Of a stretch of 64,000 nucleotides of DNA, positions 45,277-53,900 are shown one piece after another (the stretch's first letter is position 1; every line of letters starts with the position of its first letter). Source of the stretch: Lathyrus oleraceus (lineage: Eukaryota > Streptophyta > Magnoliopsida > Fabales > Fabaceae); contig NC_066579.1 in assembly GCF_024323335.1 (NCBI RefSeq), positions 356,516,900 to 356,580,899 of the forward strand. The letters run 5' to 3'. The notes beneath the pieces were generated by a model. It was not told the origin of the DNA and searched no databases. It saw nothing but the letters and a program-made list of their open reading frames with translations. Position numbers and translations under genes: made by a program.

Positions 45277-45296
45277 CACTACGCCAAAAATGACTT

Positions 45297-45510
45297 TTAA
45301 CAGCGCATCTTAGACAGCGCTTTTAAAAGAAAGCGCTGTCTAAGGTTAAAATTAAAATAAAACACGGAACATGTTCCAAAAAAATAATGAAAGCGCTGTC
45401 TAAGGGGGGGTCTTAGACAGCGCTTTCTAAAAGCGCTGTCTAAGACCCCCCTTAGACAGCGCTTTTAAATATAGACCTTAGTTAGCGCTTTTGATAAAGC
45501 GCTGTCTAAA
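45297..45510. repeat. left subterminal repeats of the CACTA element
   Basis: About nine copies of a CTTAGACAGCGC/GCGCTGTCTAAG unit, many as back-to-back pairs that form hairpins (for example around 45413-45445). Transposase binding to such subterminal repeats is known for En/Spm; binding here is inferred. Confidence 0.9.
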
Positions 45511-45603
45511 GTCTTTAAATTAAAAAAAAAATTAAAACCAGTATTGTATTTTGAGAGTGAGGTAAGAAAGGTATTGTGGTGTAGCGGGGGGTTTTGGATG
45601 TGG

Positions 45604-46446
45604 ATGGGTAAAGAAGACGAAGAAATGAAAGGTGAAATCGAAGAACGATTAATCAACGAAGAATACAAAATCTGGAAGAAAAACAGTCCCTTTCTCTACG
45701 ATCTCGTCATCACCCACGCCCTAGAATGGCCTTCCCTCACCGTCGAATGGCTCCCGGACCGCCAAGAGCCACCGGGAAAAGATTACTCCCTTCAAAAACT
45801 CATCTTGGGAACCCACACTTCCGAAAACGAGCCCAATTACCTCATGTTAGCGCAAGTTCAACTCCCTCTCGATGATTCCGAAAACGACGCTCGTCATTAC
45901 GAGGATGACCGTCCTGAAGTCGGTGGGCTCGGTATATGCCGCATAATAATTTTATTATTGCTACTAAAACTATTAGTGCTGAGGTTTATGTTTTTGATTA
46001 TAGTAAACATCCTTCTAAACCTCCTCTTGATGGTTCTTGTAACCCTGATTTGAGGTTGAGAGGGCATAATACTGAAGGGTATGGTTTGTCTTGGAGTACT
46101 TTTAAACAAGGGCATTTGCTTAGTGGCTCTGATGATGCTCAGATTTGTTTGTGGGATATTAATGGTACTCCCAAGAATAAGTCTCTTGATGCTATGCAGA
46201 TTTTTAAGGTATCCATCTATTTGTAGTGAGTTTGATTGTTTTTGTTGTTGTTTGGTGGTTTGTTGTTTGATGTTTTGTGTGATTGTTTCGTAGGTACATG
46301 AAGGTGTTGTTGAGGATGTGGCTTGGCATTTGAGGCATGAGTATTTGTTTGGTTCTGTTGGGGATGATCAGTATTTGCTTATATGGGATCTTCGAACACC
46401 CTCTGTTACCAAGCCTGTTCAGTCTTGCATTGCTCATTCAAGTGAG
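45604..46446 (+). pseudogene. MSI1-like: captured fragment of an MSI1-type WD40 gene
   Basis: It starts at a plausible native ATG ([16 protein letters not shown]) and follows MSI1/RBBP4 histone chaperones closely: the histone-H4-binding N-terminal helix ([18 protein letters not shown]), [15 protein letters not shown], then WD repeats ([27 protein letters not shown]). An 85-bp intron (46209-46293) is retained. About 22 codons are missing at 45927-45932, where GCTCGG appears to have served as a microhomology; this shifts the frame. The piece ends at a splice donor after about half of the expected 420 or so residues. The parent protein acts in chromatin assembly and Polycomb complexes; this copy cannot make it. 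Confidence 0.92.
46209..46293 (+). other. retained intron in the MSI1-like fragment
   Basis: GTATCC...TTTCGTAG between codons for IFK and VHEGVVED. It shows capture of genomic DNA, not of a processed transcript. Confidence 0.88.
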
Positions 46447-50371: not shown

Positions 50372-50403
50372 AAACGATTCCCCGGCAACATTACTTGCTC
50401 GTG
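50369..50403 (+). repeat. 35-bp duplicate of kinase exon sequence
   Basis: 50369-50403 matches 50012-50046 at 34 of 35 bases. It is joined directly to the codons for RPSAS, suggesting template switching during capture or repair. Confidence 0.88.
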
Positions 50404-50712
50404 GTGTCAATTCATGATAAAGCTCAATGTTTGTTCATAAATTTGTGTAATTAATGTGTACATTTGTAGTATATGTTATGACTTGTAAATGTGTACATAA
50501 ATTTGTATATATTTTGATACATTTAAGGCAAAATTGGTTTGAATTGGTATATATATATTTGTTAGCCAAAAATTGGTAGAAAAAAGGCCAAAATGACATA
50601 TATAAAATGTGATAATTGTCTGTCAAAATCTGGTTGAAAACAGGTAGAAATTCTGGTTTATAAACCTGGAAAAAATGTGGTTTAAAACAAAAGTTTTAAA
50701 ATTTTTTGTATA

Positions 50713-50975
50713 CCTTAGACAGCGCTTTTGTAAAAAGCGCTGTCTAAGGGGGGGCCTTAGACAGCGCTTTTTGAAAAGCGCTGTCTAAGGTATACCTAAA
50801 AAAATTAAAATAGGAGGGTCTTAGAAAGCGCTTTTGGCCAAAGCGCTGTCTAAGGGGGGGGCTTAGACAGCGCTTTTAAGATTTAAAAAAGCGCTGTCTA
50901 AACCTTTAGCAGCGGAGGTTTAGACAGCGCTTTAAAGCGCTGTCTAAGGCTAAAAAAAGCGCTGTCTAAGGTCTT
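50713..50975. repeat. right subterminal repeats of the CACTA element
   Basis: About ten copies of CTTAGACAGCGC/GCGCTGTCTAAG, often paired around a few bases, mirroring the left end. Confidence 0.9.
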
Positions 50976-53900
50976 GTTTGTTGTAGTGCTTGCTGTTATA
51001 AACCCTAGAGCTTGCCAAAATTTCTGCATAAATGTGTATGTTTGATTGTCGTTGGGATGTGCATGAACATTGTTGTTGCACTGCTGTTCACCATGTTGGA
51101 GTTTTGATTGCATGAAGGTTACTACACCATGTGTCATTTTTCTGCATGAGGCTATTGAATTCCTTGATTAATGATGAATGTTTGGAGATACCATGAAGTG
51201 CCCCTGCTGTTATTATGTGTATCTGCATAATCATGTTGTTGCTGCTATGCTGCTGACCATGCTATAGGTTGATGTTGAGCTTCGATGAAAATGTTCATGC
51301 CTGCTGTTTCTTAAATCCATTAGATCTGCCTAGAATATCTCCTTGAACTGTGTCTGCTTTTCTGTTTAATGCCATTTGGAGATGATGTTTAGTTGCCAGG
51401 CAAATTGGGCCTCTTGGTTGAGATTGATTTTCTCATGATGTTGGTCATATAAACAAACCTGTACCAGTGCCATGTTATTATGTGTTTTTGTTCGAATTTT
51501 GTTTGATGTTGATGAACCTTGGAGTGGAATTGATGTATGTTGCTGTTGTTTGATTGCTGTATGGACATTACATGATTGCCCTGCCTTTTGTTAAAACTCT
51601 TGCTGCATGAACATTGGTTGTTGTGTTTGCTCATGTTGCATGAAGATACCATGAATACATGCTGCCATTGCCAAACCCTAGTTACATGAACCTTGTTGTG
51701 TACCATGCTAAGTGATCTTGTGTTGGTAATACCATGGTGAATACCATGCTGTTTGTTTGCTTTTGTTCATGATGATAACATGTGGATGATGAATGCTGCT
51801 GTTGATTAAACCAAACACTTTGTCCATAATTATGCTATGCTGTTGTAATTGTTGGCCAAGCTCCTGTGTTGTTGAGTGTTTGCAATGCCAATGTCCTGCT
51901 GTTTGAGTGCTTTTGTTGGATTCCACTTTTGGTCGATTGCATGATGAATGCTGTTGCTGCTTAAAACCTGTCCTGAATTTTTTTCATGCTCATGTTTATT
52001 AGTAGCTGGATAATGTTGCATGAACCAAATACTATGCTGCTGTTGTGCTGGTCGAATTTCGTATTTGATGTTGGAAATACCATGAACATGTTGCCAATGC
52101 CCTGCTGTTTTGCAACTTCAACATTGCCCATGAAAATCCATTCGAATATGTTGTATGCTGTTACTTGTTTTGCTTGGTTTGATGATATTAATGAACCAAG
52201 TTTCAAGACCATGTTGCTAAACCATGCCGTGACAAACCCTGTTATTCTTTTTAGAAAATCCAGCTCATGTATGTTTTGGTTGCTGTTTGATTATTGTGTG
52301 AGCATCATGAGTGTGTTATCATGTAGTTACCATGCTGTTGTCTGATTTTGATTTGTTAATGAACATGAAGATAATGCCATGCTGTTACTGTGCTATTGAA
52401 ATGTCAGTTGATTGATTACATGATGATGATGGTTGTATGCTGTTTTTTTTAAAACCATAGAACAGAACCCTTCCCAGAATTTCCCATGAGTGCTTGTTCT
52501 AATGTGGGTTGACATTGCATGATGATGATGTTTCGTGCCATGATTCACTTTGATGCTGTTTGTCGATTGTTGTCCATGAATATGAGTCCATTTGCCTTGG
52601 CCATGCTGTTAGAAACCTTAGGGTTTTTTCTTAAAACCCAGAGTTTGAGTTGATTGGCTCGGTCACTATTCCATTGGCTGAGAGCCAATCAGATTATTTC
52701 ATTGCCATGCATCAAAACGCTGTAGTTTTGTTTAATGAACCCAGAATTACTAGTTTGCCACTGCGTTGACTTATGTTGACCCCATTTGCCATGCCTTGTG
52801 TTCATATTTCATCCATAATTTCATCCAATTTCCACAATTTATTTCTCATTCAATTTTCATCAAAAAATCTTGAAATTTTTTCCACATGTTCATGAATGTG
52901 TTCTTTATTTAATCATGATTTTTAATTAATTTTCCATGGTCTGGATTTTAAATGACAAATATTTTCTTGACATGTATGCCAAAATGACACCCTTTGCCAT
53001 TTCAATTGTGAAATTGTCATGTTATATCCATTGCCTTTGAAATTTTTTGTGATGAAACTAGACACTTTGACCTTTGTCTCCATATAGACTTTGTGCATTT
53101 ATCATTTGTGGATTGGGAGTTATGATTTTTTGAAGTCATGTGTTACAATTGTTGCTATACCATGAACATGCATCTTCACAAATTTTGTTCACATGCTTCC
53201 CTACATCCAAATGACCCCATTTTTTGCATGAATGATCCCTTGTATGTCTATTTGATGTATGAATTTTCTTGGAATTTATTGTGCAATTTTCCATTTGATT
53301 GTGATTTTTCTTCCCTGCCTAGTCCATGGTTGACTTTTTGTGCTACATGTTGCCAAATCTTTTGGGAAATTCTCATAACATATTGTATGATCATGAAACT
53401 TCATATGTGATAACTAGACATCTCAAGCTTTGCATTGGTGTTAATCTCATTCATTTCTCTTCTGTTTTCAAATTGATATGATTTTTTGAAGTTGACCCAT
53501 GCTTGTTGACTTTCACCATGCTTACTTGAATTTGGTTTGACTTCATGATTTTAATTGCCTGCCTTCCTCTCATCCAAATGCTTTGAAATTTTACATGTAT
53601 ACCATGTTAGATGTTAGGATTGAGTGTGATTTATTTCATGATTTTTGAGATTGCTTAGGTTGACTTTTGATGCAAGTCATTCTGTTGACTTTTGTATGCT
53701 ATCCTTTGCCTTGTTTTGATTTCAAATATTCATGAATTGATCATGATGCATGATTTGAATGTGGGCCCAATTGTGTTTGCTTTCTAATTGGTTGACTTTG
53801 ACTTTGAGTTGACTTTTCCTTGCTTGCCTTGACTTTTTCTTTCATGTTTGACCCTAGGCTAGTCCTAGTGGTCCTTTGGACTTATGTTGAGTTCATCTGT

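What the first reader, a model, noticed from the sequence alone, without database searches (positions are those of the whole stretch)
45277..50988. A Pack-type CACTA transposon carrying pieces of three unrelated host genes
Exact ends, a CTT duplication and dense subterminal repeats define the element to the base. Its whole interior appears to be intron-containing DNA of an MSI1-type chaperone gene, an ALB3-type insertase gene and a DYRK-type kinase gene, all in the same orientation, with no transposase. Serial capture of three genes in one 5.7 kb element shows transposon-driven exon shuffling. Antisense or small RNA from it could affect the parent genes, two of which (MSI1, ALB3) are essential in model plants.
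Basis: partly seen in the sequence, partly recalled or inferred. Interest (0 to 1): 0.92.

Follow-up and report, generated by a model that had tools for sequence, protein, structure and literature searches.

The report
Jumping DNA carrying three gene pieces
A plant transposon that has lost its own enzyme gene carries stitched-together pieces of three unrelated host genes, sits in three near-identical copies, and belongs to a large family of similar gene-carrying transposons, which makes it a well-resolved new example of a known kind.

Summary
The element is real and exact. 45277-50988 is a 5712-bp CACTA transposon with a CTT duplication. Two siblings (5715 and 5733 bp) on other chromosomes have the same ends and their own duplications, GTT and ATA. 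The joined flanks occur uninterrupted, 325 of 325 bases, in the other LTR of the retrotransposon it hit. It carries pieces of an MSI1/RBBP4-type, a YidC/ALB3-type and a DYRK kinase gene; one near-identical donor each was found, on C7, C5 and C7.

'Serial' capture is not supported: the pieces are equally diverged from their donors and no partial element was found. 'Exon shuffling' and small RNAs are untested; the MSI1 frame is broken.

The seven junctions share 1-5 bases, more than chance in sum, and one has a 36-bp templated filler, which favours template-switching repair. The exact 5' end occurs 797 times; one relative has a 1090-aa TNP2-type transposase ORF; others carry different host-like genes. 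Soybean Tgm-Express1 is a close precedent.

The parts
45274..45276 (.). Left target-site duplication CTT
   Evidence: empty site with a single CTT in the 3' LTR of the target retrotransposon, 325/325 identical
45277..45540 (+). CACTA 5' end with subterminal repeats (264 bp), shared with the family
   Evidence: 98-99% in the best other copies; exact first 30 bp 797 times in the genome; repeats
45541..47133 (+). MSI1/RBBP4-type gene piece: 5' UTR, exon 1 from ATG 45604, intron 1, exon 2 from 46294, part of intron 2; 26-bp and 67-bp deletions relative to donor C7:156418572-156420239(+)
   Evidence: donor alignment; protein identity; one near-identical donor
47129..47133 (.). Junction J1 MSI1/ALB3, shared bases TATTT
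47134..47988 (+). ALB3/YidC-type gene piece: two exons (47415-47525, 47710-47784) with the intron between them and parts of the introns on either side; donor C5:217112374-217113236(-), 98.4%
   Evidence: 60KD_IMP; YidC
47987..48023 (+). 37 bp identical to coding sequence of the C48(Ulp1)-protease gene of a coding relative (L044); includes junction bases TT (47987-47988) and GTT (48021-48023)
48021..48454 (+). Segment of an abundant non-autonomous subfamily (L022 type; 98-100% identical at 26 places listed)
48451..50370 (+). DYRK-type kinase gene piece: part of an intron, then kinase-core exons 48836-49136, 49374-49481, 49568-49846, 50004-50147, 50236-50370; the four introns between them are phase 0; lacks the last 17 codons; donor C7:626731-628705(-)
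   Evidence: Pkinase
50368..50403 (+). 36-bp templated filler, identical to donor DYRK exon sequence whose copy in the element lies at about 50011-50046; junction bases TCC and GTG
   Evidence: (D7)
50401..50988 (+). Family 3' end (588 bp): tail of the C48-protease gene, subterminal repeats, end ...TTTGTTGTAGTG
50989..50991 (.). Right target-site duplication CTT
43085..55979 (+). Target: 7180-bp 5' LTR (43085-45276 plus 50992-55979) of a retrotransposon with 5-bp duplication CTTTG; the element sits inside it; 4 transitions separate it from the 3' LTR at C1:356585886-356593065

Best explanation
A non-autonomous Pack-CACTA element, mobilised in trans by a TNP2-type transposase of relatives with the same ends. 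Shown: exact ends, three independent insertions with different 3-bp duplications, an empty site, donors for all three gene pieces, and an uninterrupted transposase ORF inside matching ends elsewhere in the genome. Inferred: the composite was built from an existing family member of the L022 kind when a break or excision gap inside it was repaired by DNA synthesis that switched template several times at 1-5-base matches: MSI1 gene, ALB3 gene, a stretch of a coding relative, back to the L022-type element, DYRK gene, a re-copied 36 bp of DYRK, then the 3' end. The L022-type stretches of about 0.7 kb on each side of the retained 434-bp segment are replaced by host DNA, as gap repair predicts. The element then stayed at low copy number and moved again recently. 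My separate odds: Pack-CACTA identity 0.97, trans mobilisation 0.85, template-switch repair 0.6, one single episode 0.45.
For: Siblings with GTT and ATA duplications, 4 and 3 substitutions from the window copy over 5712 bp. Empty site 325/325 in the partner LTR; LTRs differ at 4 of 7180, so this insertion is younger than roughly 6-110 thousand years at recalled rates of 0.65-1.3e-8. Donors. Introns kept, so DNA-level copying. Junction overlaps 1,5,2,3,4,3,3 read; sum 21 against a simulated mean of 6.9, P = 0.00035 (7 of 20,000). Filler 36/36 identical to the donor although the element's main copy differs there by one base. Equal non-exon divergence, P = 0.64. L022 arrangement. Coding relative on C6: 8933 bp, CTC duplication, ends 98% (266 columns) and 94% (278 columns) identical, 1090-aa stop-to-stop ORF, of which 1012 aa were scanned: Transposase_21 1.9e-90.
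Against: No transposition was observed and the transposase relative was not shown to be expressed. The first junction (CACTA/MSI1) has only 1 exact shared base, and only 2 of 7 single junctions are below P = 0.05 on their own. The overlap lengths were read by eye. The templates called 'ORF2' and 'PAR' are family representatives, not proven actual templates. Equal divergence rests on 41 substitutions and cannot separate events a few hundred thousand years apart. Microhomology at breakpoints is also left by simple end joining. The retained family segment between ALB3 and DYRK also fits two separate events. I tried to test a second captured gene (RNase H2, L006) for the same junction signature, but that search did not complete.
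Confidence: 0.75

Rival explanations
1. Stepwise serial capture: MSI1, ALB3 and DYRK pieces were gained in separate events at different times, each followed by transposition.
For: The retained L022-type segment between ALB3 and DYRK divides the host DNA into two blocks, as two separate capture events would.
Against: The three pieces are equally diverged from their donors, and with every candidate scored no element holding only one piece was found (9 of 9: 22 of 22: 4 of 4). Intermediates may simply be lost.
Confidence: 0.35
2. Capture by neighbouring insertions: two family members insert near a gene, the outer ends are used together, and inner ends are lost by deletion (the model described for Arabidopsis Pack-CACTA in passages of PMC8903248 and PMC13317346).
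For: It is the published model for Pack-CACTA capture (passages seen); transposon-family DNA does lie between ALB3 and DYRK.
Against: It does not by itself join MSI1 (C7) directly to ALB3 (C5), nor explain a 36-bp re-copied filler or a 37-bp stretch of a transposon gene. No family end sequence was found in the donor loci held (L013 9901, L017 4975, L019 3863 bases), though one could have left.
Confidence: 0.1
3. The element has become a functional chimeric gene or a source of regulatory RNA for the parents and is kept for that.
For: The DYRK exons read through 322 codons without a stop; a similar soybean element gives chimeric transcripts (PMC1947982, abstract and discussion read).
Against: MSI1 ORF frameshifted, stop at 46053; 5 of 9 changed DYRK codons are nonsynonymous, e.g. 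D187N (D in 6 of 6 relatives compared) and A238V (A in 5 of 6); only 3 copies; no expression data.
Confidence: 0.05
4. A chance look-alike: a host locus with these three genes in order and accidental CACTA-like ends.
For: None found.
Against: Donors on different chromosomes or 155 Mb apart, three copies with different duplications, empty site, 797 copies of the exact end with 0 in the reversed control.
Confidence: 0.01

Closest known systems
Tgm-Express1 of soybean (Zabala and Vodkin, PMC1947982; abstract and discussion read)
   Same: Legume CACTA element of almost the same size (5722 bp) carrying several unrelated host-gene fragments with introns.
   Different: Five fragments (named UP, CDC2, FPK, M, CS there); it sits in a flavanone 3-hydroxylase intron and its exons are spliced into chimeric transcripts. 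Here the element sits in a retrotransposon LTR and expression is unknown. Terminal sequences were not compared.
Pack-CACTA / Pack-TYPE elements (PMC8903248, passages read; Arabidopsis original paper not held)
   Same: CACTA ends, short target duplication, host coding DNA inside; several loci per element reported as frequent in maize, most for Pack-CACTA.
   Different: The capture model given there is by neighbouring insertions; here the junctions look like template switching.
Pack-TIRs of animals and the gap-filling/FoSTeST model (PMC8277862, passages read)
   Same: Microhomology at breakpoints, fillers, capture by template switching during repair.
   Different: Animal elements, most close to the donor; here donors are unlinked and a single element has seven junctions.
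TNP2-type CACTA relative in the same genome, within C6:27034000-27044757
   Same: Ends 98% and 94% identical to the element's.
   Different: Has a TNP2-type transposase ORF and further ORFs; the C48 protease domain was scored on the equivalent gene of L044, not on this copy.
pvCACTA1 of common bean (PMC4938662; only the start of the abstract seen in the listing)
   Same: Abundant legume CACTA family.
   Different: More than 12,000 elements reported there, so 797 exact ends here is not a record; gene capture not looked up.

Membership tests
CACTA (En/Spm) superfamily | Termini beginning CACTA, inverted at the other end | tested here: met
CACTA (En/Spm) superfamily | 3-bp target-site duplication | tested here: met
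   CTT, GTT, ATA in three copies; empty site
CACTA (En/Spm) superfamily | Subterminal repeats in both orientations | tested here: met
CACTA (En/Spm) superfamily | TNP2-type transposase in members with the same ends | tested here: met
   (Transposase_21 1.9e-90)
Pack-CACTA (Pack-TYPE) | No transposase; contains host coding DNA | tested here: met
Pack-CACTA (Pack-TYPE) | Parental gene copies elsewhere in the genome | tested here: met
   that the donors are intact genes was checked only in part (MSI1 exon 1 open, DYRK end with stop codon)
Pack-CACTA (Pack-TYPE) | Mobile as a unit (more than one copy with own duplications) | tested here: met
Pack-CACTA (Pack-TYPE) | Transposition observed | not testable with these tools
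   needs living plants or several accessions
Tgm-Express family of soybean | Same terminal and subterminal sequences as Tgm | not tested
   no soybean element sequence was compared
Template-switch (FoSTeS-like) capture product | Microhomology above chance at junctions and templated fillers | tested here: met
   (sum 21, P 0.00035; single junctions significant in 2 of 7); one 36-bp filler
Template-switch (FoSTeS-like) capture product | Same signature in other captures of the family | not tested
   search for the RNase H2 donor did not complete

The most novel reading that the evidence does not exclude
All three unlinked genes, plus a stretch of a coding relative's protease gene and a 36-bp re-copied filler, were stitched into one existing Pack-CACTA element in a single repair event by serial microhomology-guided template switching. 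The family (at least 797 exact ends, several captured gene sets, an uninterrupted transposase ORF) would then be a still-active gene-capturing system in this plant, in which capture can be watched directly.
Probability: 0.4. Interest if true: 0.62.

Novelty: new member of a known kind. Interest (0 to 1): 0.42.

Why it matters
How DNA transposons pick up host genes is still debated. Here every junction can be read against a donor or a family relative, and the junctions look like template-switching repair rather than the neighbouring-insertion model proposed for Arabidopsis Pack-CACTA. A very young insertion, near-identical siblings and a relative with an uninterrupted transposase ORF suggest a system that may still move, so the question becomes testable in a large plant genome. 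The element itself is otherwise an ordinary Pack-CACTA with a close soybean precedent.

Tried and rejected
Rejected: RNA-mediated capture, because introns are kept. Rejected: a single host locus with the three genes. Rejected: the idea that 48021-48454 is a piece newly captured by this element; it is shared with many family members. Its ultimate origin was not resolved; no donor was sought.

Corrected on checking: one search had counted one transposon-derived base at each of two piece borders as a substitution and used rough exon limits; one search recounts with stricter limits (12/804, 10/673, 19/950 instead of 13/812, 11/677, 19/951; P 0.64 instead of 0.78).

Limits: ORFs of only 8 of the 26 sampled 5'-end loci (plus L024) were scanned for families, and 4 of the 10 ORFs given had no Pfam hit. 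The middle of the output was cut, so L026-L029 were seen only in part. Paper searches gave no paper on this element; apart from the four papers opened, only listings were seen, and most subscription papers are not held. The species is not stated anywhere; 'pea or a close relative' is my inference from chromosome-sized contigs C1-C7 and 3.8 Gb and recalled knowledge. Essentiality of MSI1 and ALB3 is recalled, not tested. Mutation rates used for dating are recalled.
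Full report
WHAT WAS CHECKED. The window lies at G000:C1:356516900-356580899 in a 3.795-Gb genome of 1550 contigs; contigs C1, C2, C3, C5, C6 and C7 from which I fetched DNA are 460-655 Mb each. I read the region, searched its 5' 924 bp and its interior against the whole genome, fetched siblings, donors and relatives and compared them base by base.

ELEMENT AND SIBLINGS. The element runs from CACTACGCCAAAAATG at 45277 to TTTGTTGTAGTG at 50988, with CTT on both sides. 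Two further copies are 5715 bp (from C5:583516924, duplication GTT) and 5733 bp (from C3:336497014, duplication ATA). Substitutions: window to C5 copy 4, window to C3 copy 3; the other differences are a 2-bp indel, a 1-bp indel and a 19-base longer G run. All three are full-length, so the element is mobile as a unit.

EMPTY SITE. The flanks joined with one CTT match over all 325 bases at nine places at a printed 100%, seven of them at the top score. One of the seven is C1:356587921, about 20 kb downstream of the element once the element is subtracted. That place is the 3' LTR of the same retrotransposon: 5' LTR = 43085-45276 plus 50992-55979, 7180 bp, 5-bp duplication CTTTG outside both LTRs, 4 differences, all transitions. 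The element therefore jumped into the 5' LTR after that retrotransposon inserted. With recalled rates of 1.3e-8 or 6.5e-9 per site per year the retrotransposon is about 21,000 or 43,000 years old, 95% range from 4 events about 6,000-110,000 over both rates; the element's insertion here is younger.

WHAT IS INSIDE. From left to right: family 5' end to 45540; MSI1-type piece to 47133 (donor C7:156418572-156420239); ALB3-type piece to 47988 (donor C5:217112374-217113236, reverse strand, 98.4%); 47987-48023 identical to part of the C48-protease gene of a coding relative; 48021-48454 a segment of an abundant subfamily; DYRK piece 48451-50370 (donor C7:626731-628705, reverse strand, 95.5% with indels counted); a 36-bp filler 50368-50403; family 3' end. 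Protein identities. Searching each host piece alone, with every candidate scored, gave only the three elements and one near-identical donor each, plus weaker matches at 69-81% for MSI1 and 74-90% for DYRK and none for ALB3; the 97% rows of the DYRK search are the filler itself (22 of 22 candidates, 9 of 9, 4 of 4). L022 on C7 is a complete 2839-bp relative with duplication GTG: it has the same kind of ends and the 434-bp segment, but other DNA of about 0.7 kb on each side of it, where the element has MSI1-ALB3 and DYRK.

JUNCTIONS. Reading parents against the element gives exact overlaps of 1 (CACTA/MSI1, within an imperfect 6), 5 (TATTT), 2 (within an imperfect 6), 3 (GTT), 4 (TTTG), 3 (TCC) and 3 (GTG). 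Simulated random junctions between the same parents give a mean sum of 6.9 against 21 observed, P = 0.00035 in 20,000 trials; single junctions reach P below 0.05 in 2 of 7 cases, and the first is at 0.49. The filler is 36/36 identical to the donor DYRK exon whereas the element's own main copy differs there at 50029. Inside the MSI1 piece a 67-bp deletion lies between near-identical 9-bp repeats. These are signatures of error-prone synthesis with template switching; I infer it, it is not proven. No family end sequence lies in the donor loci held.

AGE AND SELECTION. Divergence from donors at non-exon positions (introns and the MSI1 5' UTR) is 12/804, 10/673 and 19/950, homogeneous (P = 0.64), pooled 1.7%, or about 0.7-1.3 million years at the same recalled rates. 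Exon divergence is 5/760, 2/186, 10/967. Nine DYRK codons differ, five of them nonsynonymous; at codon 118 the donor, not the element, departs from 4 of 6 relatives. The MSI1 frame is broken. Nothing points to a selected protein; the test is weak.

FAMILY. The exact 30-bp 5' end occurs 797 times (398 forward, 399 reverse; reversed pattern 0); these are ends, not verified whole elements. Of 26 5'-end loci that I read (5, 1, 20; all chosen among the 40 scored of 1224 candidates, so biased to close relatives), interiors fall into 10 groups at my threshold. One group contains transposase-coding members. I scanned ORFs of 8 of these 26 loci and of L024, which came. Host-like ORFs recognised: GOST 7-TM (L046), RNase HII type (L006), glucosamine-isomerase/6-phosphogluconolactonase type on the opposite strand (L062), CMAS-type methyltransferase (L024), XPF type (L061), and a weak FAD-binding match below the curated cut-off (L057). 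No Pfam hit: 4 of the 10 ORFs given, including the XPF-type one. For these other genes I did not find donors, so that they are captured copies is inferred from their position next to the ends. A coding member on C6 is 8933 bp with duplication CTC and ends 98% (266 columns) and 94% (last 278 columns) identical to ours; in 1012 aa scanned of its 1090-aa ORF are Transposase_21, DUF4218, DUF4216 and Transpos_assoc domains. It is a plausible source of transposase in trans.

COMPARISON. Soybean Tgm-Express1 is a 5.7-kb CACTA with five host-gene fragments whose exons are spliced into host transcripts (PMC1947982, abstract and discussion). In maize, Pack-CACTA elements hold the most distinct loci among Pack-TYPE elements (PMC8903248, passages). 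Microhomology and gap filling are described for animal Pack-TIRs (PMC8277862, passages). A bean CACTA family has more than 12,000 elements (PMC4938662, abstract start in listing), so the family size here is not new. The kind is known; what this case adds is a full set of readable junctions, the reused transposon gene fragment and filler, and the empty site in the partner LTR. I found no paper on this element in searches.

VERDICT. A real, recent, low-copy Pack-CACTA; a new member of a known kind, with junction evidence that bears on an open question about mechanism.

Noticed in passing
43085-64000: The element sits in the 5' LTR of a young retrotransposon about 20 kb long with 7180-bp LTRs (Ogre-like by size and content, name recalled); gag domain in ORF 59082-62495, DUF7745 in 57359-58774.
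   Followed up: partly
1-43000: Repeats and retrotransposon ORFs in both orientations, e.g. RT, RNase H, integrase and DUF7745 ORFs at 6776-12669 minus.
   Followed up: no
L006, L046, L061, L062, L024: Relatives with the same 5' end or segment carry other host-like genes: RNase HII, GOST 7-TM, XPF, 6-phosphogluconolactonase type, CMAS-type methyltransferase.
   Followed up: partly
L066 and L049 (C6:27034000-27044757, minus): 8933-bp relative with CTC duplication and a 1090-aa stop-to-stop TNP2-type transposase ORF.
   Followed up: partly
48021-48454: Segment 98-100% identical at 26 of the 46 listed matches; its origin (old captured host DNA or transposon) is unresolved.
   Followed up: no
45405-45451: Perfect 22-bp inverted repeat with a 3-base spacer among the subterminal repeats, a possible hairpin.
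   Followed up: no
45588, 45924, 49892: 26-bp and 67-bp deletions in the MSI1 piece and a 50-bp deletion in a DYRK intron relative to donors.
   Followed up: partly
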